A stretch of DNA of 57,963 bases from the IMG/VR virus record IMGVR_UViG_3300033997_000554, positions 1 through 57,963 of that record; one strand, given 5' to 3'. Of the stretch, positions 147 to 57,963 are shown in pieces. Position numbers and translations under genes: made by a program. Each line of letters starts with the position of its first letter. Positions within the stretch are counted from its first letter, which is position 1. This DNA comes from a virus. The notes under the pieces were generated by a model. That model saw only the letters and a list, made by a program, of their open reading frames with translations. It did no database searches and was not told the DNA's origin.

Positions 147-1361
147 TTAGGCCACCAGCCGCAGGCTGGGGGACTTTTGGGGGACTTCTTGTTGTCGCCT
201 CTCCCGCATGATGGCCAGCAAGTTGAGCGATTCACCGTCTGCGCCCGGGGCCTGGATAGCCTCGAGAGCGTCGTAAATCTCGCGCAGCTGCGCCACGGCA
301 TAGTGATCCGTCATGCTGCCGGATTTGTGCCATAGGATCTCGTTTTGGGTCCGATCCGAGACCCCGGCAGCCCGCAAGCGCATCCCGAGGGTGTGGCGCA
401 GGTCGTGCAGGTGCAGATCCGCCATGCCAGCAGCCGTCCGAGTCTTACCCCATGCATACTCGAATCGATCCGCGAGCGTCTTGTGAGGCCGCTCGGGCAG
501 CGTCCAGCCCAGCGGGTGTGGGCCTTTAGCGAGCCGCGCCCACTTGGGGAGATCCTTTACGTAGGTGAAAACGAATTCCGGATGCTTGCCCCGCTGGCTG
601 TCAACGATGCCTTGCGCGGTTGTGTTGCAAACGATGATCCTCTCCCGTTTCCGCCCCTTCACGTACTCCCGCGGCACGATGAAGACCGAACGAACCAGGC
701 CAGGGCGGATCTCGAGGGGGAGTTCCCAGGTCCACCGCAGATTCGAAAGGACATTTCGCCGGACGCCGGTATTCAAGTCGAAAAGCAGCACCTTCGCCAA
801 GTAACCTGGCGCGCTGGCCAGGAGCCTGTCCTGCTCGGCCCAGGTTATGGGGCGGGGAGGGCGCTGATCTTCGAGTTTCAGCAGGCTGATGTGGGGAGCG
901 CTCTCCAGCCAGGTCATGCGGTTCGGGAATCTCCATCGCCTTGCGGCGCGGTTGCAGATGGCCCTGACGCATTCCAGGCTGTTGTTGACCGTCTTGTCGG
1001 CCCAGCCGAACGCCTTGCGCTCCTCGATAAATGGCACGAGGGCGTCGTCGTCGAGCTGATCCAATGTTAAAGAGCCAAGGAGGGCCACCAGCGGCTCAAG
1101 CGCGTAGGTTGACGCCGTCGCCGATGGCATGCCTTCCTTCTCCAGCAGATATCTGGCCGCCGCAGCGGCCAGGGTTACCTTTGGCCGAACTCCGTTGGTC
1201 ATGTCGTCACGGATTTCGGCCTTGCGTTGCATCAGGTAGTCGCTGGCGTCCCCCTGATTTTGGAAACCACGTTTGCGAATTCGGTGCCCCCTATATCGGG
1301 CGTCGACCTCGAACGTGCCGTCTTGCGACGGGTAGATGCCACTTGTTCTAGAACGTCCCAT
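147..1361 (-). CDS. int: tyrosine-recombinase phage integrase
   Basis: A 404-residue tyrosine recombinase that would integrate and excise the prophage. Catalytic residues are visible: R201 in the TGVRRNVLSNL box, a lysine in the VKGRKR beta hairpin (about 235-238), HLHDLRH with H319 and R322, H345 in LWHKSG, and nucleophile Y354 in TDHYAV. An SAM-like core-binding domain precedes these (about residues 60-150), and the N-terminus resembles arm-binding domains. It is the last gene of the long leftward operon. Its start lies 130 bases inside the preceding excisionase-like gene, so the two are probably translated together. The usual length for the family is about 350-420 residues, so it appears intact. 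Confidence 0.95.
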   Translation of the reverse strand: MGRSRTSGIYPSQDGTFEVDARYRGHRIRKRGFQNQGDASDYLMQRKAEIRDDMTNGVRPKVTLAAAAARYLLEKEGMPSATASTYALEPLVALLGSLTLDQLDDDALVPFIEERKAFGWADKTVNNSLECVRAICNRAARRWRFPNRMTWLESAPHISLLKLEDQRPPRPITWAEQDRLLASAPGYLAKVLLFDLNTGVRRNVLSNLRWTWELPLEIRPGLVRSVFIVPREYVKGRKRERIIVCNTTAQGIVDSQRGKHPEFVFTYVKDLPKWARLAKGPHPLGWTLPERPHKTLADRFEYAWGKTRTAAGMADLHLHDLRHTLGMRLRAAGVSDRTQNEILWHKSGSMTDHYAVAQLREIYDALEAIQAPGADGESLNLLAIMRERRQQEVPQKSPSLRLVA

Positions 1362-3223: not shown

Positions 3224-3959
3224 TGATGCCTCCTTGTGCGGAAGCCTTGGGCTCGCGCCGGATTTGAATCCCGTAGATGGCCCACTCACCGGGGTGATGC
3301 GTCGCCATGTAGTGGCTGATGCGCCGCGCGCTTTTCAGCAGCCACGCCGGCACAGGCGGCGCTGTGGCGCCCAAGTAAACCAGCTCATCATCGCCCGCCT
3401 CGGCGCTGGCCTGGGGCACGGCATAGACCTTGGTGCCCGCCGGCAGCGGCCGCGAAAGACGGAAGGTATTGCCGTTGGGCTGCACGACGCCCACTGCCTC
3501 CCCGGCTACAGGGGCGCTTGCCAGGGCGGCGCGTCGCAGCACGTCCTCGCGGACCCCGGGGATGCGGCACATGGGCGGCCGCACCCCGTTGGCGCGGTCG
3601 CACTCGTCGTTCGCGCACAGCACGGCATCGGCCTGCCCGGCTTTGCATACGTCGGTAGGGCGTGCAGCCCGCTCTTCGGCTACAGGGGCGGCAATTTCCG
3701 ACACCTCAAAGACACCGAAACCGACCTCCAGTAGGGCCTTGAGCAGCCCCAGCCCTTTGTCGATGAGGTCGCCCGAACTACTGCTGGCTGCCTTTTGCCA
3801 AGCGGCACCGAGGCGGTGCGCCCCGATATTCCCCGGCTGGTGGTGGTACGTAAATGCTCGGTGCGGTCCGGGGAGGTCGAACGCTGCGCCATACGCACCC
3901 AGGGCGCGAGTGAGCGTGACGACAATCGCCGGCTGCGCGATCTTGTTCTGTTCATTCAT
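3216..3959 (-). CDS. hypothetical phage protein
   Basis: A 247-residue protein that I do not recognise. It starts MNEQNKIAQP with AAGGA seven bases upstream, three bases after the preceding gene. The middle contains two cysteine clusters (DVCKAGQADAVLCANDEC and PPMCRIP). The C-terminal part, RPLPAGTKVYAVPQ and a run ending MATHHPGEWAIYGIQIRREP, looks like the conserved tail of phage Ea8.5/Eae-like hypothetical proteins. It belongs to the compact leftward operon and overlaps DUF5131 by eight bases. Confidence 0.6.
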   Translation of the reverse strand: MNEQNKIAQPAIVVTLTRALGAYGAAFDLPGPHRAFTYHHQPGNIGAHRLGAAWQKAASSSSGDLIDKGLGLLKALLEVGFGVFEVSEIAAPVAEERAARPTDVCKAGQADAVLCANDECDRANGVRPPMCRIPGVREDVLRRAALASAPVAGEAVGVVQPNGNTFRLSRPLPAGTKVYAVPQASAEAGDDELVYLGATAPPVPAWLLKSARRISHYMATHHPGEWAIYGIQIRREPKASAQGGISG

Positions 3960-46300: not shown

Positions 46301-49300
46301 GGCGCCGGCACCTTCTGCGGCCGACTTTGCGCGCGGCGCGCGGCGCGACTTCCTGCAGATGGTGCGCCAGGCCGGAGGCATCCGCCCCGAGCTGGCAGCC
46401 GATATCTACGGCGATCGCGCCCACCTGGCCAACCGGCGGGCGCCCGGCCTGTTCCGCCAGGGTGGCATGGACGCCGACCGCCTGGTGGAAGCCATGCAGC
46501 AGGCCGGTTACCTGCCTATAGAGGGCGACACCGTCGACTTGGCGGGCACGGCTATGGATCGCGTGCGCGAGGCGCTGGAGGGCGAGGCGGTCTATTCGCT
46601 CGAGCAGATGGACGAGGCGGCGCGCCGCGCGTATGCTGAGCGCCAGGCCGAACGGTTCAGCGATGCCAAGGATAAAAACAAGCTGGCCGAGGATCTTTTT
46701 GGCGCGATCGACGCCATGCCGGCCGACACGACCATGCAGGAGCTGGCGGCGCAATTCGATGCCGCGGTCTACCTGAGCGAGCAAGGAATTACCGATGTCC
46801 CTACCCAAGAAGCCATCATCGAGCGAGCCTCAATCCAAGCCGACGGAGACGCCGGAGCATTCGAGCAAGCCGTTAAGTCCCAAGCAGCGGCGCTTGGTCG
46901 GCGGGACGATGGCGATCCTCGGCGCCCTTCGCAACAGCCAGGAGCGGGAAGCGATGGAGCAGGCGCAGGAGGTGATCGCCAAGGCGGCCCGCAAGGACTG
47001 ACCCTCGAAAGCCCGACGCCTGACGGGCTCCGGGCGGCAGCCAGCCAGCAGGCCGCCCAGCAGCAACAAGCCACCATCGAGGCCCGAGAGGCCGACCAGC
47101 GCGGCGCAGCTGATGCCGCGCGCGACGATTTTGTCCTGACCGGCAGCGACCGGGCGGCCGACCAAGCCGCAGCGCGGGGCCAGCAGGAACTGGCACCGGC
47201 CCCGGAAGCCCCCGCCGCGGCCAGCGAGCCGACCGCCCGTCCTGGTGGTCGCATCGAAGATTTCGGCGAGACGCTGCAGGGCGCCCGCAAACACTACGCC
47301 GAGCAGTACGCCGAGCGCATGCGCCAGGCCGAGGCGTTGCCGATCCGCGATCACGCCCTGGCCGAGACGTGGCCGGAGCCGAATTACGGCAAGCTCCTCG
47401 AGGACGGCGCCGACCCGTTCCTGGTGGCGCTCGTGCACGCCAGCCGCGACGAGATTCCCAGCAAGCCGCGCAAGGGATGGAAGCTCAAGGGCTGGGTCGA
47501 CCAGGTGCAGCGGCTGCGTGAATTCTCCGGCGAGCTGCTGGCGGGCAGGATCAGGGGCGCCGACGTGCGCGCCATCCTAGATAAGTCGCAGGATCTGCGC
47601 GACGTCTACGGGCGGGCCCAACTGTACGAGGCCGTGGGTCATGATCGATCCCTGCGCGGCGTGTCCCTGCGGTCGGCAGACTACAGCGTTTTCGCCGGCG
47701 AGAGGTTCGACCCGCCGCGCCGGATCTGGACCGTAGAGCGCAAGGCGTCCACCGGCATGGGCAACTGGCCGCAGATCGCCGCCAAGGGCGACAGCGCCGC
47801 GGCAGCCATCGCCGATTTCAAACGCGAGATGGACAGGCAGGCCGGCGAACCGGCGCCGGCGCGTGAGGTGCGTTTCGATATCTACTCGCGCCCGCGCATG
47901 CCTGGTTTCTACATCGGCAAGAAGGTCGGTCGGACCTACATCGACTTGCAGCACTTCGATGACGTCAAGGCCGCCCGCGCCTACCTGGCCGAGAACAAGG
48001 AGCAGCTGACCCAGCGGCTGGACGAGCTGAAGGACGTCCCGGCGCACCGGCGCGAGACGAACGCGCCGCGGGTTGGCGTGGACCACCGGGATGGCGGTGA
48101 CGTGACGCCGGCGCAGTTCAGCGATGCCTTCGGCTTTCGTGGGGTGCAGTTCGGCAATTATGTCGAGGGCGGCCGCCGCCAGGCTGATCTGAACGAAGCC
48201 TACAATGCCCTGATGGATCTGGCTGGCGTCATCGGCGTGCCGGCGCGTGCGCTGTCGCTCAATGGCGAGCTGGGCCTGGCCTTCGGCGCGCGCGGCGCCG
48301 GCGGGAAGGATGCCCCCATGGCGCACTACGAGCCCGGCCAGGTCGTTATCAACCTGACGAAGAAGCGCGGCGCGGGGTCGCTCGCGCATGAATGGTGGCA
48401 CGGCCTGGACAATTATTTCTCGCGCCGTGGCGGCACGTCGGCCGGGTACGCCTCAGAAGCAGGCGCTGCCACCACCGGCATCCGGCCCGCGATGGCCGAG
48501 GCCTTCGGGGCGCTCAAGCAGACGATCGGCCTGATCGGCATGCGAGAGCGGTCGCGCAAGCTGGATGAGCGCAAGGCGAAAGACTACTGGTCCACCGGCC
48601 GCGAGCTGTCCGCGCGGGCGTTCGAGAGCTATGTGATCGCCAAGCTGGCCGACCAGGGCGCCGCCAACGACTACCTGGCCAACGTGGTGCCGGAGAAGGC
48701 CTTCGGCGACGAGCTGGCCTACCCGTACCCGACCGCCGCCGAGATCCCGCAGATTCGGGCGGCGTTCGATCGCTTTTTTCAGACGGTGGATCAGGTGCCC
48801 GGCGAGGATGGCCGGATTGCGCTCGAGAGTCGGGGCGACGGCGGGCAGGGTGTCGACCCTGCCGAAGCGCGGCGCCTGGCGGCCGACTTCATGGGCAAGC
48901 TGCCGGGCGCAGCCGCCCTACGCGTGTCGGTTGTGGAGCGCGTCGACCAGATTCCCGAGGGGGCGAAACCGTCCGTGATGGCCGAGGGAGCCTACTACCC
49001 GGCGGGCGATGGCGGCCGGATCTACCTGGTGGCTGAAAACGTGCCCACGGCGGAGCGCCTGCAGCAGGTGCTGGCGCATGAGGTTGTCGGCCACTTCGGC
49101 GTCGAGGCGCTTCTGGGCGATCGCTTCCGCGACGTGCTGGCCGACGTGCGCCGTCTGGCTCGCGCGCCGGATGGCGCGCACATCCCGCGCGACGCGGGCC
49201 CGGACCATCCGCACTACGCCACCTTCGAGGCTGTGACGGCGCGCTATCCGGACTATTCGGCCGCCAACCGCGCCCGCGAAGTCCTGGCGCGCATGGCGGA

Positions 49301-52300
49301 GCAGGGCAAGCGCCCGGTGTTCCTGGAACGTCTCTACGGCATGATCCGCGCCGCGCTGCGGCGGCTGGGCCTGAACCTGCAGTTGAACAACGCCGACATC
49401 CGCAAGATGGTCGTCGACGCCGGCCGGTTCTTGCAGCGTGCGCCGGCGGCGCGAGTGAGCGCCGGCATGCAGGAAGCCGCCGCCTCGATGGCGGCCAGCC
49501 GCGGGGCAGACACCTCCGGCGCCGCCGTGACCGTGCTGACCGGCGAGGAGCTGGGCGCGGCCGAGCTGGGCGCCAAGGAGCTGCGCGATGCCGCGCGCAC
49601 CTGGGCGGCGGAGAACCTGAAAGGGAAAAATTTCGTGAACCGCGCGACCGGTTGGGCGGTGCAGGTCAGCCAACGCGGCATCAAGGAATCGCTGTCACGC
49701 AGCGCCCGCATCAGCAAGGTCCAGTCCATGGTGGCATTGCCGGGCCTGATCGAACAGGCCATCCTGGGCCATTCGGAAGCCAACCGCAACAAGCAGCGTG
49801 ATCCCTTTACCAGCCAGGTGCACACGCTGTATGCGCCGGTGGAGATCGCCGGCCAGGACTACCTGGCGCGTCTGGTCGTGAAGGAAAACGCCAACGGTCA
49901 CCTTTTCTACGACCACGATCTTTCCGAGGTGGTGGAAGCAAAACGCCCCGACAACACGTCTGCCGTAAGCATTCCCGCTTCCAAAGCGGGCGCAGATCAG
50001 ACGCCGTCAGGGCGAGGTTTTACGGTAGAAGATATCGCGGCGATCGTCAACAGGGAGGGACGGGCCGGCTGGGTGTTCGATCCTGGCGCGCTCGAGTCGC
50101 GCCGCCGCTACGAGAAAGCCCCGCCAGCCGCGGGGCTTCGTACTTCTGAGCTCGTGGAATCGCGCGCGGCCGCGGCGACCGCAGGCACCCCGCCAGCGCA
50201 GCCCGGCGCGGCCCGCGAGCCCAAGCGCGGCGCCAAGATCGAGCGCCCGGGCGAGACGCTGTCCGACATCGAGCGGCGCCAACGCAACAAATTCTTGGGC
50301 AAGATCGGCGCGTGGGCGGAGCAGGAACCCATCAAGGCGCGCCTGGCCAAGGCGTCCGATCGCTGGCAGGCGAAGCTGGTGCAGGGCATTTTCGATCAGT
50401 TCGCGCCGCTCAAGGGGATCAGCGCCACCGCCTACATGCAGGCGCGCCTATCCAAGGGCGCCGACGGCGCCGCCGAATACCTGGTGCGGCACGGCGCGGT
50501 CAAGCTGCAGGACGGCGCGCTGGACACTGCCGGCGGCAAGGGGCTGGCGGAAATCCTGGCCGGCTTGAACGGCGAACACGACCATTTCATGGCCTGGATC
50601 GCCGCCAACCGGGCCGAGCGCCTGGCTGCCGAATGGCAGGTGCGGTTCGACAACGGCGTGACCGAGCGCTTTGCGAACGAGGCCGCCGCGCGCACCGAGG
50701 CGGCGAAGTGGCCCGGCGCCAAGGCCGAGCCCGCGTCGCGCGAACGGCTTTTCACGCCCGACGATATCGAGGCCGGCAAGCGCCTGGCTCAGGGCAAGAT
50801 GGCCGACGGCCGCGATCGCGCCACCGTCTACCGCGAAGCCCTGGGCCAGTTCAACGAGCTGCAGCGCTCCGTCCTGGACGTGGCGCAGGAGGCCGGCCTG
50901 GTCGACCCCAGCTCGCGCAAGCTGTGGGAGAGCGAGTTCTATGTGCCGTTCTATCGGGTGATGGAGGACGACGCTACCGGCACCATGGGGCCCGGTCAGA
51001 TCGGCGGCCTGGTGGGCCAGCACGCATACAAGCGCCTCAAGGGCGGCACGGACAAGCTGGGCGACCTGGTCGCCAACACGGTGTCGAACTGGTCGCATCT
51101 GCTGTCCGCGAGCATGAAGAACCTGGCCGCGCAGGGCGCGCTGCAGGAGGCGGAAAAGCTGGGTGTCGCCACGCGGGTGCGCCAGGCCGAGCGGGGCAGC
51201 GTGCGCGCCATGTTCGCCGGCCAGGAACGCCACTACCAGGTATCCGATCCGCTGGTGCTGAACGCGCTGACGTCGCTGCATTACGTCGGCTCCAATGACC
51301 CATTCACCAAGGCGGCGCGAAAGTTCAAGCACGCGCTGACGGTGGGGGTGACCATCAGCCCGACCTTCCGCGTGCGCAACTTGCTGCGCGACACGATCCA
51401 GGCCATGGCGATCGACAGCAACCTGTCCACCAATCCGCTGCGGAGCCTGGTGGAAGGGTGGAAGGCAACCGGCGCCGAGAGCGACACCTGGCGCCGGCTC
51501 ATGGCTGGGGGCGGGGCGGTGCGCTTCGGATCCTTCAACGACGGCAACGCCCGCAACGTGAAGCGCCTGGTCGACGAGCTGGGCGCTCATCCCGACGACG
51601 TCATCACGTCGCCGGCCGGCATGGGCCGCGCGCTGCGCAAGGCCTTCGACTGGTATCAGGAAACTGGCGACCGATCCGAGACGATCAACCGCGCGGCGAT
51701 CTACCAGCAGGCACGCAAGGCCGGCCGCAGCCATCTGGAGGCCAGCTATGCCGCCCGCGACCTGATGGACTTCACCGCCGGCGGCACGTTCTCCGCCGTG
51801 CGGATGCTGTCGCAGGTGGTGCCATTCTTCAACGCACGCCTGCAGGGCATGTACAAGCTGGGCCGCGGCGCGGCCGCGGATCCTGCCCGGTTCGCCGCGG
51901 TAACGGGCGCCGTGGCGATGGCGTCGGCGCTGCTGTACCTGGGCATGAAGGACGACGACGACTACAAACAGCTGCCCGACTGGGCGCGCAATTCGTTCTG
52001 GATCACGAAGTTGCCGGGCACGAACCACTTCGTCTACATCCCGAAGCCGTTTGAGATCGGCGCCCTGGGCAGTGTGGTCGAGCGCGGCACCGAGCTGGCC
52101 TTTGGCGGGGACGACTTCCGCCTGCGCGACTTCGGCCGGACGGTGGGCGCCATCCTGAGCGAGCAGCTGTCGATGAACCCGGTCCCGCAGCTGGTCAAGC
52201 CGGCGATGGAAGCGGCGTTCAACTACGACTCCTTCCGCGAGCGCGACATCGACAGCGTCGGTCAGCAGCGCCTGCCGGCCGGCGATCGCTTCACGGCGTC

Positions 52301-52838
52301 GACCTCGGCCGGGGCGGTGGCGCTGGGCAAGGCGCTGGGCCTGTCGCCGCAGCGCCTGGAACACCTGGTGCGCGGCTACTTCGGCTGGCTGGGAACGCAG
52401 GCGCTGAACGTGTCCGATCACCTGGCCAGGCCGCTGTCGGGCCTGCCCGAGAATCCGCGCCGCGACCTGAGCCGCCTGGATAACTGGTTCGTAGTCGGCG
52501 ATTTCGTGAAGGAATCCGACCCGCGCTCGAGCAAGTACATCCAGCGGTTCTATGACGAGCAGCGCGAACTCAACCAGGTCTACGCCGCCTTTTCACAGGC
52601 GCGCGAGCTGGGCGACCTCGAGCGCGCCCGCGAGCTGGCCGGCGACGACCAGATGCGCCTGCGCGCACTGTTCAAGGCTGCCGACAGCCAGCTGCGGGAC
52701 GTCAATCTCAAGATCAAGGCGCTCGAGCGCGCGAGCATCCCGGCCGACGAGAAGCGCGCGCAGCTGGACCTGCTGTACCGCGCCCGTAACCGCCTGGCCG
52801 CGCTGGCCGACCAGCACGCCCGCAGCGCCCGTCCCTGA
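43350..52838 (+). CDS. giant polyvalent ejected protein (3162 residues)
   Basis: A 3162-residue protein with many domains, in order: alanine/glycine-rich possible membrane-inserting segments (about 180-215, 265-285 and 345-360); a repeated GKPF-x-T-type module (about 380-410, again at 940-975); a lysozyme-like domain starting RGIRNNNPGNIQRG (about 575-690); a pyrophosphatase-like domain starting VGRTRIAGLDISIENP (about 787-920); LPD5/LPD1-type domains with zincin motif HEWWH (H1680 to H1684); a second zincin-like motif HEVVGH (about 1910); a PBECR/LPD3-like nuclease fold (about 2095-2200, SRxxIKESLS and FYDHDLSE); and an LPD38-like C-terminal region (about 2660 onward). It is probably injected with the DNA and modifies or protects in the host cell. 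Proteins of this class are known as large polyvalent proteins. Confidence 0.88.
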   Translation: MENFENPADGIEFKDNVAARRDQVRADLDVQFSDAGAPAGATGKPLPFTFRVADYTRAQQDGGGIEFVDFPKTLAGGAIKGAGSAVRGVGKVAEGLGRVGVTAVNQAFDAGLEIPTNPLEGAADATHRLGERVLDSRTAEAKRREADSQPGGDLDKPETWTLGRDPSASGLALQALNAGGSSALPVLASVAAGPLGVGARMAAGAAAGGAMGGGNAIEQARETIDGLDDQQLAAASSAYRDLIAQGVTPEEARARVRADAENAAFVRTLPVSAVGGAATGRILSPAGRVLGDRGVVAQTLGKAALAGTEEAVQEVGEGYATQKGINAGAGMALDPMAGSFGNAALGFVAGMGPGAVHGATEGVRHRGVPSAPSLEAGDVMHASGKPFVTASAARQRAEELGEWAQVLRYENGFIVRPGAAVDQQAAGAAPTAAEGSGGTEGAPAATDTANADGQAAGFAPRQQVYLRQNGRELPVEFLGVESNAATARAGGEQLARIRTADGRGRFVRLSELFAEPMPGNSLRQAMDGPAALEGPEAFPVLDGPIQRAALPAPDGYAAGEGFVARDSWRMPANAPRGIRNNNPGNIQRGAGFQGEVEGNDPRFATFATPEDGIRAIGMNLLTYQRQHGLDTVRGILNRWAPPSENDTGAYVGQVARALGVEPNQQLDLSDPATLTGLTAAIIRHENAMQPYNAAQLEAAVSAALSGAPVRRALPAPVYQVDGEGVAATAGQRDAELARQAAMGMTPDVAAAGERHPGAATDAAAHEAATSPTNDRPEPTDAQKDAGNYKVGRTRIAGLDISIENPEGSERRGTSPDGTSWANRMAGHYGYIRRTQGADGDQVDVFVRPGTTPDFAGPVFVIDQVDPAGGRFDEAKVMLGYDTREDAERAYRDSYTPDWRGMGKITQMDVPTFKRWIDEGDTTKPASESGLGTLVAEPDITAKGGRPFLTRGAAQRAATLHGNADVEPVDGGFVARPRTGQPPREAPAPSAADFARGARRDFLQMVRQAGGIRPELAADIYGDRAHLANRRAPGLFRQGGMDADRLVEAMQQAGYLPIEGDTVDLAGTAMDRVREALEGEAVYSLEQMDEAARRAYAERQAERFSDAKDKNKLAEDLFGAIDAMPADTTMQELAAQFDAAVYLSEQGITDVPTQEAIIERASIQADGDAGAFEQAVKSQAAALGRRDDGDPRRPSQQPGAGSDGAGAGGDRQGGPQGLTLESPTPDGLRAAASQQAAQQQQATIEAREADQRGAADAARDDFVLTGSDRAADQAAARGQQELAPAPEAPAAASEPTARPGGRIEDFGETLQGARKHYAEQYAERMRQAEALPIRDHALAETWPEPNYGKLLEDGADPFLVALVHASRDEIPSKPRKGWKLKGWVDQVQRLREFSGELLAGRIRGADVRAILDKSQDLRDVYGRAQLYEAVGHDRSLRGVSLRSADYSVFAGERFDPPRRIWTVERKASTGMGNWPQIAAKGDSAAAAIADFKREMDRQAGEPAPAREVRFDIYSRPRMPGFYIGKKVGRTYIDLQHFDDVKAARAYLAENKEQLTQRLDELKDVPAHRRETNAPRVGVDHRDGGDVTPAQFSDAFGFRGVQFGNYVEGGRRQADLNEAYNALMDLAGVIGVPARALSLNGELGLAFGARGAGGKDAPMAHYEPGQVVINLTKKRGAGSLAHEWWHGLDNYFSRRGGTSAGYASEAGAATTGIRPAMAEAFGALKQTIGLIGMRERSRKLDERKAKDYWSTGRELSARAFESYVIAKLADQGAANDYLANVVPEKAFGDELAYPYPTAAEIPQIRAAFDRFFQTVDQVPGEDGRIALESRGDGGQGVDPAEARRLAADFMGKLPGAAALRVSVVERVDQIPEGAKPSVMAEGAYYPAGDGGRIYLVAENVPTAERLQQVLAHEVVGHFGVEALLGDRFRDVLADVRRLARAPDGAHIPRDAGPDHPHYATFEAVTARYPDYSAANRAREVLARMAEQGKRPVFLERLYGMIRAALRRLGLNLQLNNADIRKMVVDAGRFLQRAPAARVSAGMQEAAASMAASRGADTSGAAVTVLTGEELGAAELGAKELRDAARTWAAENLKGKNFVNRATGWAVQVSQRGIKESLSRSARISKVQSMVALPGLIEQAILGHSEANRNKQRDPFTSQVHTLYAPVEIAGQDYLARLVVKENANGHLFYDHDLSEVVEAKRPDNTSAVSIPASKAGADQTPSGRGFTVEDIAAIVNREGRAGWVFDPGALESRRRYEKAPPAAGLRTSELVESRAAAATAGTPPAQPGAAREPKRGAKIERPGETLSDIERRQRNKFLGKIGAWAEQEPIKARLAKASDRWQAKLVQGIFDQFAPLKGISATAYMQARLSKGADGAAEYLVRHGAVKLQDGALDTAGGKGLAEILAGLNGEHDHFMAWIAANRAERLAAEWQVRFDNGVTERFANEAAARTEAAKWPGAKAEPASRERLFTPDDIEAGKRLAQGKMADGRDRATVYREALGQFNELQRSVLDVAQEAGLVDPSSRKLWESEFYVPFYRVMEDDATGTMGPGQIGGLVGQHAYKRLKGGTDKLGDLVANTVSNWSHLLSASMKNLAAQGALQEAEKLGVATRVRQAERGSVRAMFAGQERHYQVSDPLVLNALTSLHYVGSNDPFTKAARKFKHALTVGVTISPTFRVRNLLRDTIQAMAIDSNLSTNPLRSLVEGWKATGAESDTWRRLMAGGGAVRFGSFNDGNARNVKRLVDELGAHPDDVITSPAGMGRALRKAFDWYQETGDRSETINRAAIYQQARKAGRSHLEASYAARDLMDFTAGGTFSAVRMLSQVVPFFNARLQGMYKLGRGAAADPARFAAVTGAVAMASALLYLGMKDDDDYKQLPDWARNSFWITKLPGTNHFVYIPKPFEIGALGSVVERGTELAFGGDDFRLRDFGRTVGAILSEQLSMNPVPQLVKPAMEAAFNYDSFRERDIDSVGQQRLPAGDRFTASTSAGAVALGKALGLSPQRLEHLVRGYFGWLGTQALNVSDHLARPLSGLPENPRRDLSRLDNWFVVGDFVKESDPRSSKYIQRFYDEQRELNQVYAAFSQARELGDLERARELAGDDQMRLRALFKAADSQLRDVNLKIKALERASIPADEKRAQLDLLYRARNRLAALADQHARSARP
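46795..47001 (+). CDS. possible nested gene inside the giant protein gene
   Basis: An alternative-frame ORF of 68 residues with AAGGA eight bases before ATG. The product, MSLPKKPSSSEPQSKPTETP then LSPKQRRLVGGTMAILGALR and REAMEQAQEVIAKAARKD, has natural-looking composition and two amphipathic helices. The giant protein in the overlapped stretch (about residues 1149-1217) is instead rich in Gly/Arg/Asp/Gln and seems unstructured (GAGSDGAGAGGDRQGGPQ). So this frame, not the giant frame, may be under selection here. Existence as an expressed protein is not shown. Confidence 0.45.
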   Translation: MSLPKKPSSSEPQSKPTETPEHSSKPLSPKQRRLVGGTMAILGALRNSQEREAMEQAQEVIAKAARKD

Positions 52839-52898: not shown

Positions 52899-53309
52899 AT
52901 GTTCGCATTCAGCCTTTCGGCGCGCAGCCTGCAGCGCCTGGACGGGGTACACCCCCGACTTGTCGAAATCGTCAAACTGGCGATCCAACGCACCGCGGTC
53001 GATTTCACGGTAGTCGAGGGTCTGCGCTCGCCCGAACGCCAGCGCGAGCTAGTCGCCCAAGGCGCCAGCCAGACGCAGAACAGCCTGCACCTGCGCCAGC
53101 AGGACGGCTATGGCCACGCCGTCGACCTGGCGCCGCTGGTCGGTGGCGCGATTCCGTGGAGCGACTGGGAGCAATTCCGCCGCCTGGCCGACGTGGTGAA
53201 GGCCTGCGCGGCCGAGCAGGGCACGCCGGTGGAGTGGGGCGGGGACTGGAAGTCGCTCAAGGACGGTCCTCACTTTCAGCTGCCGCGCGGCTGGGCGGCA
53301 GCAGCATGA
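52899..53309 (+). CDS. endolysin, L-alanyl-D-glutamate peptidase type (M15)
   Basis: A 136-residue peptidase of the VanY/M15C family. Motifs: DFTVVEGLRSPERQRELVAQ, SLHLRQQDGYGHAVDLAPL with zinc ligands H73 and D76 (H64 may be the other), and DGPHFQLP with H125. It cuts between L-Ala and D-Glu in peptidoglycan stem peptides during host lysis. It has GAGGAG upstream and no signal peptide, so it needs a holin for export. Genes for Rz and Rz1 follow directly. Confidence 0.9.
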   Translation: MFAFSLSARSLQRLDGVHPRLVEIVKLAIQRTAVDFTVVEGLRSPERQRELVAQGASQTQNSLHLRQQDGYGHAVDLAPLVGGAIPWSDWEQFRRLADVVKACAAEQGTPVEWGGDWKSLKDGPHFQLPRGWAAAA

Positions 53310-53830
53310 TGAAGATGACCGGCCTGCTGGTGGGGTGGCGGGGGTATGCCGTTGCGGTGGTGGTGGGGGCGGTTGCTGCTGGTGGCGTGGCCTGGACAGC
53401 CCAGGCCTGGCGCTATACGGCGCAGTTGGCGGAGGTGCGTGCCGACCACGCGGAAGATCAAGCGGCCCAGGCCAAGGCTACGGTGGCCGCCGTCGAGGCT
53501 GTCAGGAATGAAGAAAGGCGGCGTATGGCCGCCGTGGAGATTGCCCGTGATGATGCCCAGAAACAAGCCGCTGCCGCGGCTACTGATGCTGCTGGCGCTC
53601 GTGATGAGCGTGACCGCTTGCGCGCCCGTGCCAACACGCTGGCTCGCGCCGCAGCAGCCGAACACCCCGCCCTTGCCGACGGAAGCCCGTCAGGAGCCGC
53701 TGCCGTCGATCTGCTCGCCTACATGCTCGGCCGCGCTGTCGATCGAGCTGAAGCGCTTGCGGGCATTGCAGACCGTGCCCGCGTCGCGGGACTGACCTGT
53801 GAGCGGGTGTACAACGATTCTCGCCGCTAA
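53306..53830 (+). CDS. Rz-like inner-membrane spanin (DUF2514-type)
   Basis: A 174-residue protein. N-terminal helix MMKMTGLLVGWRGYAVAVVV then GAVAAGGVAWTAQAW anchors it in the inner membrane, followed by a long periplasmic coiled coil (EVRADHAEDQAAQAKATVAA, RRRMAAVEIARDDAQKQAAA). It starts inside the endolysin stop (ATGA). It would fuse the inner and outer membranes with Rz1 at lysis. The Rz1 gene is nested in its 3' part. Confidence 0.8.
   Translation: MMKMTGLLVGWRGYAVAVVVGAVAAGGVAWTAQAWRYTAQLAEVRADHAEDQAAQAKATVAAVEAVRNEERRRMAAVEIARDDAQKQAAAAATDAAGARDERDRLRARANTLARAAAAEHPALADGSPSGAAAVDLLAYMLGRAVDRAEALAGIADRARVAGLTCERVYNDSRR
53550..53795 (+). CDS. Rz1-like outer-membrane lipoprotein nested in Rz
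   Basis: An 81-residue protein in the alternative frame of the Rz gene. It starts MMPRNKPLPRLLMLLALVMS, with lipobox-like VTAC (cleavage before Cys), followed by a proline-rich short mature part (APVPTRWLAPQQPNTPPLPT). GGAGA lies upstream. This is the classic embedded Rz1 arrangement of lambda-like lysis cassettes. Two further cysteines in ICSPTCS could form dimers. Confidence 0.8.
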   Translation: MMPRNKPLPRLLMLLALVMSVTACAPVPTRWLAPQQPNTPPLPTEARQEPLPSICSPTCSAALSIELKRLRALQTVPASRD

Positions 53831-53945
53831 TTTCCCGCGTGAGGTGAGCATCATGCAAAGATCTTCTCGATAGATGCGTGCGACCACCATTGCGGAATAA
53901 TTGTGTAAACTCGATGCGGACACGAATTGAAATATATCTAAACTG
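53831..53945 (+). promoter_or_regulatory. AT-rich intergenic region before the accessory cluster
   Basis: About 115 bases of low-GC sequence (GAATAATTGTGTAAACTC and AATTGAAATATATCTAAAC) between the spanin and Dam-type methylase genes. A promoter for the cluster is expected here; TGTGTAAACT near 53901 resembles an extended -10 element, but no convincing -35 was found. It marks the sharp change from phage composition to AT-rich accessory genes. Confidence 0.35.
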
Positions 53946-54755
53946 ATGATTGAAAAAAAAGAGCTTGTTCCCCCTCTTAAATGGGCGGGGGGGAAGCGAT
54001 GGTTTGTGACCAACTATCGGCATCTAATCCCAGACTCCTACGATGGTTATATAGAGCCATTTGTGGGATCGGGGGCTCTTTTCTTCACGCTGCGTCCGAA
54101 ACAGGCAATTCTCGCTGATGTAAATCCGGAGTTGATTAATCTTTATTCGGTAATACGATCGGATCCGTATGGCATGCAGCGCAAATTGCTTCGCCATCAA
54201 AGGCTGCACTCAAAAGAGTATTTTTATTATATGAGAAAATCTGTCCCTCGCTCTGAGCTGGGGCGGGCGGCCAGATTTCTTTATCTAAATAGAACGTGCT
54301 GGAACGGGCTGTACCGGGTCAATGCTCAGGGAAAATTCAACGTTCCAATTGGGACGAAGACGTCTGTTGTGATGGATACGGATGACTTTGAAGCATTGGG
54401 GGGGGCGCTGAATGGCGTGTCTTTGCTGTGTTCGGACTTCGAGGCTGTTGTTGATCGGGCGCAAAAAAACGATTTTGTATTCGTTGACCCGCCCTATACC
54501 GTAGCTCACAACTTTAACGGCTTTGTGAAATATAACGAGGTGTTGTTTTCATGGGGTGACCAAGAAAGGTTGATGCAGGCGGTGAGTCGGGCGGTGCGTC
54601 GTGGGGCAAAAGTGTTAGTCACCAATGCTGCACACGATTCTGTCCGAGCGCTTTATGCAGGCTTCGAGCAAATGTATGTTTCCCGCAGTGGAGTCATTGC
54701 GGGTAAGGCAAGTGCACGAGGTAATTTCCAAGAGCTTGTGATTCGTTGCTACTAA
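53946..54755 (+). CDS. D12-class (Dam-type) adenine-N6 DNA methyltransferase
   Basis: A 269-residue protein. SAM-binding and catalytic motifs of the D12 family are complete: PPLKWAGGKRWFV (10-22), IEPFVGSGALFF (36-47), FLYLNRTCWNGLYRVN (111-126) and FVDPPY with DPPY at 181-184. It should methylate adenine in a short palindrome such as GATC, though specificity is not readable here. It lies in an AT-rich cluster with two following genes, five bases and then a four-base overlap apart, so they form one operon. A defence, anti-restriction or regulation role is inferred. Confidence 0.88.
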   Translation: MIEKKELVPPLKWAGGKRWFVTNYRHLIPDSYDGYIEPFVGSGALFFTLRPKQAILADVNPELINLYSVIRSDPYGMQRKLLRHQRLHSKEYFYYMRKSVPRSELGRAARFLYLNRTCWNGLYRVNAQGKFNVPIGTKTSVVMDTDDFEALGGALNGVSLLCSDFEAVVDRAQKNDFVFVDPPYTVAHNFNGFVKYNEVLFSWGDQERLMQAVSRAVRRGAKVLVTNAAHDSVRALYAGFEQMYVSRSGVIAGKASARGNFQELVIRCY

Positions 54756-54760
54756 AAAAA

Positions 54761-55306
54761 ATGGACACTTGGGACGAAATAAAATCTAAGATGGCACGAA
54801 AACTGCAGACACCCGGGTGGTCCGCAGCAGGGGAGGTTGTTTTCACTCTTGTTGTGTCGAATCTCTCCTTGGGAATTATGCTGTTCATCGCATTTTTAAT
54901 CGATCGGGATGCCGAGATTTCAATGTGCGGCATATGGGAGCGGTTGGCAAGTAGCATAAATCCCACTGAAGTTTTGATATATATATTGGCGGTAATTACT
55001 CCGACTTTGTGGTATATGGCTGTCAATGTTCGCGCAAGAAAATACTTAAAAGGGTTTACCTGGATCCTGTTCTTGCAATGCGCTCTTATATTGGGGAGTG
55101 CTATTGTTTTTGCTCTCGCAAAAACTGGAATGACGTTGAATCAGCGAGTATTGATTCCGTTTGCTTGGGGAAGCTTTTTGTTTGCGATTGCGATTTGGTA
55201 CGGCGTCCTTGTATTTCAGAAAAGTGTTAAAGAGGGGCCGCATGTTGATGCAAGTGATATTGCGGCTAGAGGCGGCAAGGCAATGGCGCAGGAGCTGGAT
55301 TCATGA
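54761..55306 (+). CDS. four-helix membrane protein in the accessory cluster
   Basis: A 181-residue protein starting MDTWDEIKSKMARKLQT. Four hydrophobic segments: about residues 25-47 (EVVFTLVVSNLSLGIMLFIA), 68-85 (TEVLIYILAVITPTLWYMA), 97-117 (FTWILFLQCALILGSAIVFA) and 128-147 (LIPFAWGSFLFAIAIWYGVL). A short cytosolic tail ends with DIAARGGKAMAQELDS. AT-rich as its neighbours. No SD is seen before the ATG, so translation may depend on coupling to the methylase gene (an upstream TTG at 54746 is an alternative start). Function unknown; a membrane effector or anchor is possible. Confidence 0.7.
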   Translation: MDTWDEIKSKMARKLQTPGWSAAGEVVFTLVVSNLSLGIMLFIAFLIDRDAEISMCGIWERLASSINPTEVLIYILAVITPTLWYMAVNVRARKYLKGFTWILFLQCALILGSAIVFALAKTGMTLNQRVLIPFAWGSFLFAIAIWYGVLVFQKSVKEGPHVDASDIAARGGKAMAQELDS

Positions 55307-56451
55307 AGAATAGAGCGGAGTTAGAGGCTTTTCGAGCCATTCCAGTCGAACAGCCTATAGGTGTTTTTTTTCTCGCCAGTATTCCGGCTCGAGATTTGGT
55401 GGAAATATCTTCTGCAGATTTGCGACACATGGAGCAGGAACTCGATCGCTACGTGGGTATTCAACGGGAGTTGAAGGCGGATCGGGTCGCTGAGATTGGA
55501 AAATTTGTTAATTCGGTTGATGCAACCTTCCCTACTTCCGTAGTGTTGGCGGTAAAAAGTTCGTGCGCTACCTTCGATGAGAAAAGAGGCACGCTAACCC
55601 TGCATGAAGGGATTGACGAAAGTTCGGGTGAGCCTATTCCGCTAGGAAAGGTAGCCAATATCCTGGATGGACAGCATCGCGTCGAAGGCCTGAAAGCGCT
55701 GGTTGAGCACGAGACATTCGATGTGCCAGTTTCAATATTCGTTGATGCTGATATTGCCGACCAGGCGTATATATTCGCAACCGTTAATTTGGCACAGACT
55801 AAGGTCAATAAAAGCTTGGTCTATGATTTATTGGATTATGCTAAGGCTCGAAGTCCTCAGCGCAGCGCGCATGAGATTGTTGTTGCATTAGACGGCGCTC
55901 AGAAAAGTCCGTTGTATCAGAAGATTAAGCGCTTGGGTACTGCTACACCTGGTCGCCAGCCTGGAGTCGAGACCCTCGCCCAAGCCACTGTGGTTAACGC
56001 GATTCTGCCCTTAATCTCCAGAGACCCAGAGACAGATCGTTTTGAGTTGGCGAAAGGAAAAAAGCTGTCGTTGAAGGATGTTCGATATGAAAGCACTCCT
56101 TTGCGTCATTTGTGGATAAAAGAACGAGATACTGATATTGCGAGAATATTGTTTGAATATTTTGCCGCTGTGAAGGAGCAGTGGCCCGAGGCATGGGATT
56201 CTAAAGAGAGGGGCGCAATGTTGGCGCGAACGAACGGGTTTCGTGCATTTTCTAAATTTTTTAAATTGGTTTATCTTCGCGAGCGTCCGGTGGCGGATTT
56301 GGAGAATCCGATCGTTTCGAGATCTAGGTACTCCAAGTACTTTTCCAGGGTCAAGCTGGAGAGTGAGTCGTTTAATTCTATGTATTTTCTTCCTGGCACG
56401 AGCGGTGAGACTTCCCTATTCAACCAACTCCGGAGAGATACCGGCGTCTAG
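55303..56451 (+). CDS. DGQHR-domain (DndB-like) protein
   Basis: A 382-residue protein with the ParB-like signature NILDGQHRVEGL (D122-R126) and the following PVSIFVDADIADQAYIFATV then NLAQTKVNKSL, typical of DGQHR/DndB proteins. In Dnd and DISARM-like systems DndB-type proteins control DNA modification or link to nucleases. The rest is helical with no second catalytic motif. It overlaps the membrane-protein gene by four bases. The three-gene set with a Dam-type methylase has no Dnd partners here, so the DGQHR protein works in another context. Confidence 0.8.
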   Translation: MKNRAELEAFRAIPVEQPIGVFFLASIPARDLVEISSADLRHMEQELDRYVGIQRELKADRVAEIGKFVNSVDATFPTSVVLAVKSSCATFDEKRGTLTLHEGIDESSGEPIPLGKVANILDGQHRVEGLKALVEHETFDVPVSIFVDADIADQAYIFATVNLAQTKVNKSLVYDLLDYAKARSPQRSAHEIVVALDGAQKSPLYQKIKRLGTATPGRQPGVETLAQATVVNAILPLISRDPETDRFELAKGKKLSLKDVRYESTPLRHLWIKERDTDIARILFEYFAAVKEQWPEAWDSKERGAMLARTNGFRAFSKFFKLVYLRERPVADLENPIVSRSRYSKYFSRVKLESESFNSMYFLPGTSGETSLFNQLRRDTGV

Positions 56452-56684
56452 TGAAAGTCAAAGGCGCGCACGTTGTATTTGAGTTCGCGCCGTTTCCTGT
56501 CATGCCGAAAGTATCGTGGCTGTTGTTTGAGTGATTGCGCCACTTCTGAGAGAGCGGAGTTGCGGCCTGAGTTGAAAACGCCCCAGCCCGTGAGGGGCTG
56601 AGGCGAGTGCTCTGCGGCGGCCGGCATGGGCGTCGCGAGCGTGATAAATCTATCATGGCCAATGGCCTCGTGGTGATGTGAGGC
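56452..56684. other. intergenic region after the accessory cluster
   Basis: About 230 bases without a gene I can support. Composition returns to high GC midway. The only feature seen is the hairpin at 56575-56605 that ends the leftward gene from the right end. No tRNA or repeat was seen. Confidence 0.5.
56575..56605 (-). terminator. terminator of the leftward gene at the right end
   Basis: On the minus strand CGCC-T-CAGCCC pairs with GGGCTG-G-GGCG (one mismatch) around a short loop (56579-56605) and is followed by TTTT (complement of AAAA 56575-56578). It lies about 80 bases after the stop of the minus-strand gene at 56685. Confidence 0.7.
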
Positions 56685-56999
56685 TCACTCGGTGACCCAT
56701 TGCATCCACCACCCCTGGTAGTAGCGCACACCGGCGATTTCCTCGAAGCCACAGACCATCATGCCCCGGTCCGATCCAAAGGTCAGCAACACTGGGTCAA
56801 GCAAGTCGGGGATCGCGCTTGGGATCCTGGCGCCAAACTTGGCCAAGCTTTCCATGGTCAGGCGCGGTACGTGGCGATTCAGCCCGTCATGGGGCATCGA
56901 GTACATCCGGACCGTGCCCACGACGGGCTGGCCTGGATCGTTGTCGCGGCGGCGTTCGCCGAGGTGGTGTGTGCGTAGGACGCTGCACTGGAATTGCAC
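56685..56999 (-). CDS. hypothetical phage protein under LexA-type control
   Basis: About 104 residues from a GTG at 56999 (a longer start at 57059 exists but would put the LexA box inside the gene and upstream of its own -35). Sequence: YSMPHDGLNRHVPRLTMESL, then AIPDLLDPVLLTFGSDRGMM and the conserved-looking end VCGFEEIAGVRYYQGWWMQW. It resembles a phage family of unknown role. It is followed by a terminator and preceded by a LexA box, so SOS expression is expected. Confidence 0.6.
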   Translation of the reverse strand: MQFQCSVLRTHHLGERRRDNDPGQPVVGTVRMYSMPHDGLNRHVPRLTMESLAKFGARIPSAIPDLLDPVLLTFGSDRGMMVCGFEEIAGVRYYQGWWMQWVTE

Positions 57000-57014
57000 G
57001 ATCTTGCTCGAAAA

Positions 57015-57036
57015 ATACTGGATATATATCCAGTAT
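57015..57036. promoter_or_regulatory. LexA-type SOS box between divergent genes
   Basis: ATACTGGATATATATCCAGT plus AT is a perfect 22-bp palindrome (57015-57036) containing CTG-N10-CAG. To the left, TTGATG (57049-57044) and TATATC with 17 spacing form a minus-strand promoter under the box; to the right TATAAT (57034-57039) is a perfect -10 element overlapping it. So both divergent genes could be LexA-repressed. Confidence 0.85.
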
Positions 57037-57092
57037 AATTCGCCATCAAAGCGGTGCAATTAGGCCCCGATTTTGGCCTTAGGGGACGGAAC

Positions 57093-57287
57093 ATGGCGGA
57101 TGTGACGGACTGGCAGCAGCGTGACGAATACTACTGGGCAGGGCCTGGCAGCTGGACCATCTGCCGAGTATTCGCACAGAACCGCTGGCAGTATGAGGTG
57201 TGGGCGGTGAATGGCACGCGCCACGGCATGGAGCCGTCCCTGGCCGCCGCGATTACGCTCTATGAGAAGGTCAAGCCGGTGTCATAG
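57093..57287 (+). CDS. small phage protein right of the SOS box
   Basis: A 64-residue protein starting MADVTDWQQRDEYYWAGPGS with AGGGGACGGA upstream (57081-57090). It continues WTICRVFAQNRWQYEVWAVN and MEPSLAAAITLYEKVKPVS. Small acidic/aromatic proteins of this type are common next to SOS-regulated phage genes. It would be transcribed from the perfect -10 at 57034 under LexA control. It converges on the SRAP gene with a 17-base overlap. Confidence 0.6.
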   Translation: MADVTDWQQRDEYYWAGPGSWTICRVFAQNRWQYEVWAVNGTRHGMEPSLAAAITLYEKVKPVS

Positions 57288-57963
57288 GATCGACAGGTTC
57301 GACGGCGTCGGGAAGCTTGTACTTGGAGTTGCCCACTTCCTGGCGCACGGGGTGCCAGCTGAAGGCGGTTTCGGGGAGTCCTTGCGAGAGCATGGCCACC
57401 GCCTGCGCGGTGGGTAGGTCGGGGGCCATCCATTGCAGCGCCAGGTCGGGAGGCAGTGCCACCGGCCGGCGGTCGTGGAGGTCGATCATCCCGCCCGCCG
57501 CGTCGTTGGTGACGATAGCAAAGCCGTGAGCCTCGTCTTTCTCGGCGCCTGGCTTCCAGTCACTCAGGCCTGCGAAGAACAGCGGGGCATCGTCTTTCGA
57601 GTGAATGAAGTAGGGTTGTTTGGGAGGTTTGGTGCTGTCGGCAAGCGGCTTCCATTCGTACCAGCCATCCGCCGGTACGAGGATCCGCCCGCGCCCGATG
57701 AGCATCTTCCACGGCCATGCGCCGGCCAGGATCTTGTCCAGGCGGGCATTCGACATCAGGTGCTTGGAATTGCTGGGGCGCCATCCCCATGGCAGGCGTT
57801 CGACTTCGAACTCGCCCGCAAGCTGGTGCATTGCCAGCGGCTGCCTGCCGGGCGGGATGTTGTAGTCCGGCCCGGCCGGGTCGGAGAAGATTCGGCGGGG
57901 ATTGGGGAACAGGCGCTCCACGTAGTCCATGGGGCCTGACTTCTGGACGATTCGGCCGCACAT
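57271..57963 (-). CDS. SRAP-family (YedK/HMCES-like) abasic-site protein
   Basis: A 230-residue protein with the complete SRAP signature: MCGRIVQ with Cys2 as the crosslinking residue, PDYNIPPGRQ, RILVPADGWYEWKPL and MIDLHDRRPVALP. SRAP proteins form covalent bonds with abasic sites in single-stranded DNA and protect replication forks. The start ATG coincides with the right edge of the window, so upstream sequence is not visible. It is probably phage-borne, as similar genes occur in other phages, but it could be the first host gene. Confidence 0.9.
   Translation of the reverse strand: MCGRIVQKSGPMDYVERLFPNPRRIFSDPAGPDYNIPPGRQPLAMHQLAGEFEVERLPWGWRPSNSKHLMSNARLDKILAGAWPWKMLIGRGRILVPADGWYEWKPLADSTKPPKQPYFIHSKDDAPLFFAGLSDWKPGAEKDEAHGFAIVTNDAAGGMIDLHDRRPVALPPDLALQWMAPDLPTAQAVAMLSQGLPETAFSWHPVRQEVGNSKYKLPDAVEPVDPMTPA

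What the first reader, a model, noticed from the sequence alone, without database searches (positions are those of the whole stretch)
53946..56451. AT-rich three-gene module: Dam-type methylase, four-helix membrane protein, DGQHR/DndB-like protein
Three genes with tight spacing (five bases, then a four-base overlap) lie right after the lysis genes and differ sharply in base composition from the phage. The combination of a D12 adenine methylase with complete motifs, a membrane protein with four helices, and a DGQHR protein without any Dnd partner is not one I recognise as a named system. Known DndB-type proteins regulate DNA modification; a membrane component is typical of abortive-infection or exclusion effectors. 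A plausible reading is a self-contained defence or anti-superinfection unit in which methylation marks self and the DGQHR protein senses DNA state. The assembly into one system is inference from operon structure.
Basis: partly seen in the sequence, partly recalled or inferred. Interest (0 to 1): 0.75.

Follow-up and report, generated by a model that had tools for sequence, protein, structure and literature searches.

The report
Conserved methylase, DNA-sensor, membrane-protein cassette
A bacterial virus carries a three-gene cassette (a DNA-marking enzyme, a membrane protein and a likely DNA-sensing switch) that recurs in many unrelated bacteria and may protect the host cell from other viruses, possibly by acting on the cell membrane instead of cutting DNA.

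Summary
The genes at 53946-56451 are a Dam-family adenine methylase (M), a four-helix membrane protein without a known family (T), and a DGQHR protein with a ParB-like domain (D). Searching with D alone gave 109 loci including the window. T lies directly upstream of D in 103 of 109 (four of six misses start at a contig end). A Dam-family methylase is within 2.5 kb in 85 of 109; another DNA-methylase family is nearby in 15 more. T and D co-vary tightly; M less so. Nine loci without Dam have a BglII/BstYI restriction enzyme; no Dam locus has one. Similar membrane-protein/DGQHR pairs lie beside phosphorothioate (Dnd) genes. In the window the cassette fills a variable slot between lysis genes and prophage end; 31 related records lack T-D and Dam there, and some carry IetAS, PD-Lambda-2, RmrA or Abi genes, others non-defence genes. 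Best reading: a modification-linked conflict system in which D senses DNA modification state and T is a membrane effector. The unit is well supported; defence is inferred; trigger and membrane action are untested. Ten literature searches found no description of this trio.

The parts
53946..54755 (+). M: Dam-family (D12) DNA adenine-N6 methyltransferase; best match among solved structures is DpnM (DpnII methylase)
54761..55306 (+). T: 181-aa membrane protein with four helices, fast evolving; putative effector
55303..56451 (+). D: DGQHR protein; N-terminal ParB/Srx-like domain (about residues 15-167) plus helical C-terminal part; putative modification sensor
53831..53945 (.). AT-rich leader (GC 0.443) between the Rz-type gene and M. 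The simple promoter scan found no match here
53806..57270 (.). Variable cargo slot: similarity to Achromobacter phage CF418P1 stops at 53805 and the SRAP gene begins at 57271; holds the trio and small unassigned ORFs
52899..53309 (+). Context: peptidase M15 endolysin
53303..53830 (+). Context: DUF2514 (Rz-type; 'endopeptidase Rz' in CF418P1)
57271..57963 (-). Context: SRAP-family gene on the far side of the cargo slot
147..1361 (-). Context: phage integrase, which marks the phage as temperate

Best explanation
The cassette is a mobile modification-linked conflict (defence) system in three parts. M methylates adenine, probably in GATC, on the lysogen's own DNA. D is a ParB/Srx-fold nucleotide switch that reads the modification state of DNA. 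T is its membrane partner and the likely effector: when D meets DNA in the wrong state (an incoming unmethylated phage, or loss of M), it acts through T to disable the membrane or arrest the cell. It would be a restriction-modification analogue in which a sensor plus a membrane effector takes the place of the nuclease. Shown here: the conserved three-gene unit, the tight T-D pair, the exchangeable modification partner, the predicted folds and the position in a variable prophage slot. Inferred: GATC specificity, D as reader, T as effector, and the direction of the trigger.
For: Conserved unit: T directly upstream of D in 103 of 109 loci; Dam-family methylase within 2.5 kb in 85 of 109 (82 within 700 nt) and another DNA-methylase family (MT-A70, a second D12 type, N6_N4) in 15 more, counting L003 at about 2.6 kb. 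After merging D at 90% identity: 79 Dam, 15 other methylase, 9 none of 103 clusters. Dam-family ORFs: 87 in 486 kb near D against 3 in 861 kb further out in the same loci. T-D is the core: Mantel r 0.738 for D-T against 0.371 for D-M over 80 loci, although T evolves fastest. Modification partner is exchangeable: BglII/BstYI enzyme within 4 kb in 9 of 24 non-Dam loci and 0 of 85 Dam loci; in 9 of 9 Dnd-type DGQHR loci that I opened a 3-4 TM ORF precedes the DGQHR gene. D fold: ParB-like proteins lead the structural list, PadC and ParB Z 8.2, rmsd 2.9 over 96-99 residues; DGQHR, F158 and N162 invariant and the QR pair at least 90% conserved in 101 sequences. SspE is described as the equivalent of DndB (passage of PMC10853773); SspE and DndI sense phosphorothioate and couple it to NTPase and nickase activity (passages of PMC11662687); a DndB-like protein binds ATP and GTP (passages of PMC12704722). 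Slot: IetAS, PD-Lambda-2_B, RmrA and Abi_alpha in related records at this position, while none of 31 such records has D or a Dam-family gene in the stretch held. Patchy: no D-type match at E 1e-40 in the other 368 of 369 genomes sampled from one class. GATC is not depleted in the window (353 seen, 328 expected), as expected if the phage methylates its own sites.
Against: No experiment. T has no recognised effector family or fold; SLATT/PycTM hits in 3 and 1 of 99 T proteins may be hydrophobic chance. Three loci with full flanks (L031, L046, L077) have T-D without an adjacent methylase and L042 has D without T or methylase. An Acinetobacter phage DGQHR protein has a methylase neighbour but no membrane partner; a Lactiplantibacillus one has a 2-TM neighbour and no modification gene on the stretch. 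Homology between Dam-type and Dnd-type T proteins is undecided (hhalign probability 38%, E 3.3e-4). The D fold evidence is moderate: Foldseek E 0.18 or worse, Z 8.2 is near the level the tool calls common, and SspE (4.0) and BrxU (4.2) score no better than unrelated rows. Most scanned slot genes had no defence match, and the slot also holds acyltransferase and C5-epimerase genes. Co-inheritance of neighbours raises all three Mantel values. Normal GATC frequency is equally expected without any selection.
Confidence: 0.5

Rival explanations
1. DNA-to-membrane tether. D binds entering or replicating foreign DNA and T anchors it at the membrane, blocking injection or replication without killing the cell (superinfection exclusion), in the way Noc, a ParB relative, links DNA to the membrane (Noc's membrane role is recalled).
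For: D resembles ParB, Noc and PadC in its N-terminal part; T-D coupling is tight; in seven loci T-D runs on the same strand as an HTH gene upstream, with Dam downstream on the other strand, and the one tested has HTH and S24 domains like a CI-type repressor (L087), which fits expression in the lysogen.
Against: Does not by itself explain the methylase, restriction-enzyme and Dnd neighbours, unless the tether is modification-selective. No membrane-binding data.
Confidence: 0.2
2. Regulatory or accessory role. D works like DndB or DpdB, controlling expression or helping the modification enzyme, and T is a regulatory membrane partner; there is no separate effector.
For: DndB represses the dnd operon by binding its promoter (PMC4507180, passages); DpdB, called ParB-like, is described as supplying ATPase activity for base insertion (PMC12839542, passages).
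Against: Dnd locus L110 carries DndB as well as the separate TM-DGQHR pair, so there the pair is not that regulator. Dam enzymes need no such helper (recalled). D is far below the DndB (16 of 328 bits) and DpdB (82 of 300 bits) cut-offs. T-D occurs without an adjacent methylase in three loci.
Confidence: 0.15
3. Addiction or prophage-maintenance module. T-D is a toxin held in check by methylation, mainly keeping the element in the host, as restriction-modification systems can; antiphage action is secondary.
For: Found on plasmids and viral contigs and patchy; shares the mechanism of the best explanation.
Against: T-D pairs in two genomes without a Dam/D12 family hit (L031, L046) would be lethal unless another methylase protects them; N6_N4 methylases do occur there.
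Confidence: 0.1
4. Unrelated lysogenic-conversion genes that happen to be neighbours, for example Dam as anti-restriction plus an unrelated pair.
For: Dam sits on the opposite strand downstream of D in 15 of 109 loci, and D-M co-variation is modest.
Against: A Dam-family gene within 700 nt in 82 of 109 loci from many phyla, and strong enrichment near D against the rest of the same loci.
Confidence: 0.05

Closest known systems
Phosphorothioate-sensing systems IscS-DndBCDE-DndI and SspABCD-SspE
   Same: A modification enzyme set paired with an NTPase reader; SspE is described as the DndB equivalent (PMC10853773 passage); membrane-protein plus DGQHR pairs occur next to dnd genes
   Different: The mark here would be adenine methylation by one Dam-type enzyme; DndI and SspE carry their own nickase domain, whereas D has no recognised nuclease domain and comes with a four-helix membrane protein
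DGQHR_dnd_1 (TIGR04172, 'DNA phosphorothioation-associated DGQHR protein 1')
   Same: Full-length similarity to D (199 bits, residues 11-376); also preceded by a 3-4 TM ORF in the loci opened
   Different: D scores far below the curated cut-off of 450 and its relatives are linked to methylases
Type II restriction-modification, DpnII/BglII/BstYI type
   Same: M is closest to DpnM among solved structures; some T-D loci include BglII/BstYI-family nucleases with MT-A70 or D12 methylases
   Different: No BglII-type nuclease in the window; T and D stand where the nuclease would be
DndB and DpdB (DGQHR proteins of the Dnd and Dpd systems)
   Same: DGQHR motif and ParB-like relationship
   Different: D is below both equivalog cut-offs; different gene context

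Membership tests
Dam family DNA adenine methyltransferase (TIGR00571 / Pfam D12) | Score over curated cut-off, with SAM-binding and DPPY motifs | tested here: met
   230 bits, cut-off 114.85; 160 bits, cut-off 22; motifs
Dam family DNA adenine methyltransferase (TIGR00571 / Pfam D12) | Methylates GATC | not testable with these tools
   Best solved relative is DpnM; its GATC specificity is recalled and transfer to M is inferred
DGQHR domain proteins (TIGR03187) | Score over curated cut-off | tested here: met
   188 bits, cut-off 58.85; 101 of 101 members of A5 match the family at E 1e-3 or better
DGQHR_dnd_1 (TIGR04172) | Score over cut-off 450 | tested here: not met
   199 bits
DndB (TIGR03233) | Score over cut-off 328 and dndCDE neighbours | tested here: not met
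   16 bits; no dndC or dndE hit in the window
DpdB (NF041060) | Score over cut-off 300 | tested here: not met
   82 bits
Type II restriction-modification | Cognate restriction endonuclease beside the methylase | tested here: not met
   No nuclease family over cut-off in M, T or D; no BglII-type hit in the window; no other ORF over 147 aa in the cargo slot. Enzymes of other families elsewhere in the phage were not searched for
Phosphorothioate defence (Dnd) | Sulfur-modification genes dndCDE | tested here: not met
   No dndC or dndE hit; dndD hits only the N-terminus of an AAA_23 gene. ssp genes not tested
ParB/Srx fold | ParB-like N-terminal domain in the predicted structure | tested here: met
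   ParB-type proteins (PadC, ParB, Noc and others) fill ranks 1-14 at Z 8.2-6.0 and sulfiredoxins follow at 5.4-4.7; first clearly unrelated row 4.3. Foldseek E-values themselves were weak, best 0.18
SLATT / Pycsar TM effectors | Profile match of T | tested here: inconclusive
   RTasSLATT in 3 and PycTM in 1 of 99 T proteins at E 0.01, best E 0.0022 and 0.00099; window T none

The most novel reading that the evidence does not exclude
A portable sensor-effector pair (ParB-fold DGQHR protein plus four-helix membrane protein) that plugs into different DNA-modification chemistries (Dam-type or MT-A70 methylation, or phosphorothioation) and converts 'unmarked DNA' into membrane disruption: restriction-modification without a nuclease.
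Probability: 0.35. Interest if true: 0.85.

Novelty: new variant of a known kind. Interest (0 to 1): 0.7.

Why it matters
Modification-based immunity is usually understood as mark self, cut non-self. A conserved operon in which the cutting part is replaced by a DNA-state sensor and a membrane protein would show that the self/non-self mark can drive a cell-level response, and would give a function to a DGQHR branch that I know only by association. It could also explain why a temperate phage carries its own Dam enzyme. The prediction is sharp: the outcome should depend on the Dam status of host and infecting phage, which can be tested in ordinary E. coli laboratory strains.

Tried and rejected
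Single-sequence viral scan with D found nothing; the profile scan found 25 loci. T has no tblastn match in phages or plasmids at E 1; it was found in relatives only by position. Foldseek and VIA-align gave no convincing relative for T: scattered helical bundles, best Z 8.4, below the level that the tool calls meaningful for helical bundles; a missing match does not show a new fold. Pfam over 99 T proteins: 22 families, each in one member only. Sequence search of PDB with the D profile: 0 matches up to E 1. PD-Lambda-5 was considered because M matches its B component weakly (35.6 bits against 313 for a type II methylase model) and rejected because T and D match no PD-Lambda-5 part. The greedy gene caller missed some methylases, so counts were redone on six-frame ORFs (one search replaces). 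The promoter/terminator scan found no more than shuffles. The GATC count says nothing decisive about function. Ten literature searches in the open PMC library showed no description of the trio in the listings or in the passages I opened; subscription papers, preprints outside that library and supplements were not searched. Papers: PMC10853773 (abstract, outline, passages); PMC11662687, PMC4619093, PMC12839542, PMC12704722 and PMC4507180 (passages).

Rows left out of counts or calls: the tool kept the best 80 of 151 genome relatives; the Mantel test used 80 of 109 loci (M, T and full-length D all present); structure alignments A5 and A6 held 101 and 99 sequences; of 39 plasmid records 13 were opened, chosen by rank and label; 80 of 133 slot ORFs, from 28 of 31 records, were scanned, and the PADLOC table showed 25 of 43 families; L077's genome is not held, so 11 of 12 asked-for genomes were searched.
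Full report
What is there. The three ORFs are as described: M 53946-54755, T 54761-55306, D 55303-56451, with a five-base gap and then a four-base overlap. The stretch has 47.5% GC against 67.1% before it, and the eight lowest-GC 2.5 kb windows all overlap it. M is a Dam-family D12 methylase over its curated cut-offs with KWAGGK, EPFVGSG and DPPY; its best solved relative is the DpnII methylase DpnM, 188 bits. T has four hydrophobic segments. Modelled from an alignment of 99 sequences it is almost wholly helical (pLDDT 89.7); it has no family in Pfam, PADLOC or NCBIfam. D passes the DGQHR domain cut-off.

Is the trio real? I searched with D only, so neighbours did not influence the choice. With 3 plasmid, 80 genome and 25 viral loci plus the window there are 109 loci. 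An ORF with at least two TM segments ends within 200 nt of the start of D in 103 of 109. Of the six misses, L020, L028, L029 and L098 start at or near a contig end, L083 has a broken D with a 3-TM ORF further upstream, and only L042 has room and no T. A Dam-family methylase lies within 700 nt of the pair in 82 and within 2.5 kb in 85; 65 have it upstream on the same strand, 15 downstream on the other strand. Fifteen more have a different DNA methylase (MT-A70 in 12, a second D12 type in 2, N6_N4 in 1), counting L003 at about 2.6 kb. Nine have none: five with short flanks (L007, L020, L028, L040, L063) and four with full flanks (L031, L042, L046, L077). At 90% identity of D the loci form 103 clusters: 79 Dam, 15 other, 9 none. 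Dam-family ORFs number 87 in 486 kb near D and 3 in 861 kb elsewhere in the same loci. DPPY is intact in 89 of 89 M proteins of the cluster.

Which parts belong most tightly together? Over 80 loci with all three genes, tree distances of D and T correlate at 0.738, M and T at 0.437, D and M at 0.371; permuted maxima were 0.104, 0.223 and 0.154. T evolves about twice as fast by tree length (80 against 34 for D and 40 for M). So T-D is the core, and M is attached but exchangeable. In line with that, 9 of the 24 loci without Dam have a BglII/BstYI-family restriction enzyme within 4 kb and none of the 85 with Dam do (Fisher p 3e-7; family checked for three, and annotated in two more). In three Dam loci (L009, L048, L075), and as a shorter piece in L065, a DGQHR protein with an N-terminal extension lies in the same neighbourhood. 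I read a nuclease-like D...ECKS pattern in that extension by eye; the Pfam nuclease matches were below cut-off.

A wider pattern. Among plasmid hits, DGQHR proteins labelled as phosphorothioation-associated, and unlabelled relatives, sit beside Dnd or Dpt genes. In all nine that I opened (L110, L111, L112, L115-L120) a 172-228 aa ORF with 3-4 TM segments directly precedes the DGQHR gene. In L117 the neighbours are AAA and FtsK-type genes without a Dnd label; L120 carries no annotation, and its dndC, dndD and dndE were found by tblastn. L115 also has a methyltransferase directly downstream. L110 has DndB itself, so there the pair is additional to that regulator. Two contrary cases: L113 has an upstream ORF with two TM segments and no modification gene on the stretch, and the Acinetobacter phage L114 has methylase and DGQHR but no TM partner. 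Profile comparison between the two T groups is undecided (probability 38%, E 3.3e-4), so the shared arrangement may be common descent or convergence.

Structure of D. The model (pLDDT 90.1) has a ParB/Srx-like N-terminal domain: PadC, ParB, Noc and relatives fill the top 14 rows (Z 8.2 to 6.0), then sulfiredoxins; SspE and BrxU appear at Z 4.0 and 4.2, no better than unrelated rows. Foldseek E-values alone were weak, best 0.18. The three hallmarks of DGQHR domains named in PMC4619093 (QR pair, DGQHR, FxxxN; passages) are present: DGQHR, F158 and N162 are invariant and Q54-R55 at least 90% conserved in 101 sequences. The C-terminal half is helical without a clear relative in these lists.

Where it sits. 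The window is a temperate phage with an integrase (147-1361), a large terminase and a P22-like portal. Achromobacter phage CF418P1 is 92-94% identical over three blocks between 35160 and 53805; similarity stops at 53805, 25 bases before the end of the Rz-type gene, and resumes more weakly (77%) in the SRAP gene. I fetched the same position in CF418P1 and in 30 viral records found with the Rz-type protein. None of the 31 has a D, Dam, MT-A70 or BglII-type match in the stretch held, while the same search finds D and Dam in the window. GC just downstream of the Rz-type gene is lower than upstream in 27 of 31. Among 80 slot ORFs from 28 records there are IetAS (L123), PD-Lambda-2_B (three, one of them CF418P1), RmrA (L124, L126) and two Abi_alpha genes, but also acyltransferases, C5-epimerase-type proteins and many ORFs without a match. 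So the cassette lies in a variable cargo site that is used, among other things, for defence genes. In seven loci T-D follows an HTH gene on the same strand and Dam lies opposite; L087's HTH gene has CI-like HTH and S24 domains. These look P2-like to me from the neighbouring sequences, which I did not test. D-type proteins are patchy: no match at E 1e-40 in the other 368 of 369 genomes sampled from one class.

How it most likely works. SspE and DndI sense phosphorothioate and couple it to NTPase and nickase activity; for DndI, unprotected DNA is nicked and marked DNA releases the enzyme (passages of PMC11662687). A DndB-like protein binds ATP and GTP (passages of PMC12704722). D keeps this type of fold and has no recognised nuclease; what accompanies it almost without fail is T. 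I therefore propose that M marks self DNA, D reads the state of DNA using a nucleotide switch, and T is the effector at the membrane. The acidic residue followed by a tyrosine and a proline at T's second TM helix (E70, Y74, P81 in the window; D or E in 79, Y in 67, P in 73 of 99) is a first target for mutation. The direction of the trigger, GATC specificity and membrane damage are inference. The tether model and a regulatory role remain possible.

What is known. PADLOC 2.0.0 has no model for the window's T and matches M and D only to methylase-type and DpdB/DndB models. Ten text searches showed no paper that describes the trio or a membrane partner of DGQHR proteins, as far as listings and opened passages go. 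In the comparative study of Dnd systems PMC10853773 (abstract, outline and passages seen) DndB is discussed as a ParB-superfamily protein with several possible roles, and its two membrane-word hits were a reference title and a remark on phages with internal membranes. A description may still exist in a supplement or a closed paper.

Noticed in passing
L009:1745-4126, L048:5033-7309, L075:4962-7262, L065:3849-4982: Large (758-793 aa) DGQHR proteins with an N-terminal extension that looks nuclease-like (D...ECKS pattern, read by eye) lie beside the trio; L065 holds a shorter piece.
   Followed up: partly
L122:5548-7129 and L135:5608-7153: Another pair at the same slot: a 339-352 aa gene followed by a 173-179 aa gene with 3-4 TM segments; the L122 pair has no PADLOC match at E 1e-5.
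   Followed up: partly
L128:5595-7334, L134:5613-7352, L140:5614-7353: A 579-aa single ORF recurs in the cargo slot; the L128 copy has no PADLOC match at E 1e-5.
   Followed up: partly
L114:4111-6906: Acinetobacter phage MD-2021a has cI repressor, methylase, DGQHR protein and a 294-aa unknown without TM segments in a row: possibly the same logic with a non-membrane third gene.
   Followed up: no
L041:4659-5753 and L003:4123-5217: A 364-aa protein (no Pfam match for the L041 copy) occurs near T-D in two loci with MT-A70 methylases.
   Followed up: no
L115:5694-6713: In a Dnd-type locus a class I SAM-dependent methyltransferase gene directly follows the DGQHR gene, so both chemistries may meet in one locus.
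   Followed up: no
window 2222-3289 (-): DUF5131 gene (292 bits) near the integrase end of the phage.
   Followed up: no
window 43350-52838 (+): A 3162-aa ORF; its counterpart in CF418P1 is annotated 'putative portal', but a P22-like portal is at 24953-27235 in the window, so that label is probably wrong.
   Followed up: no
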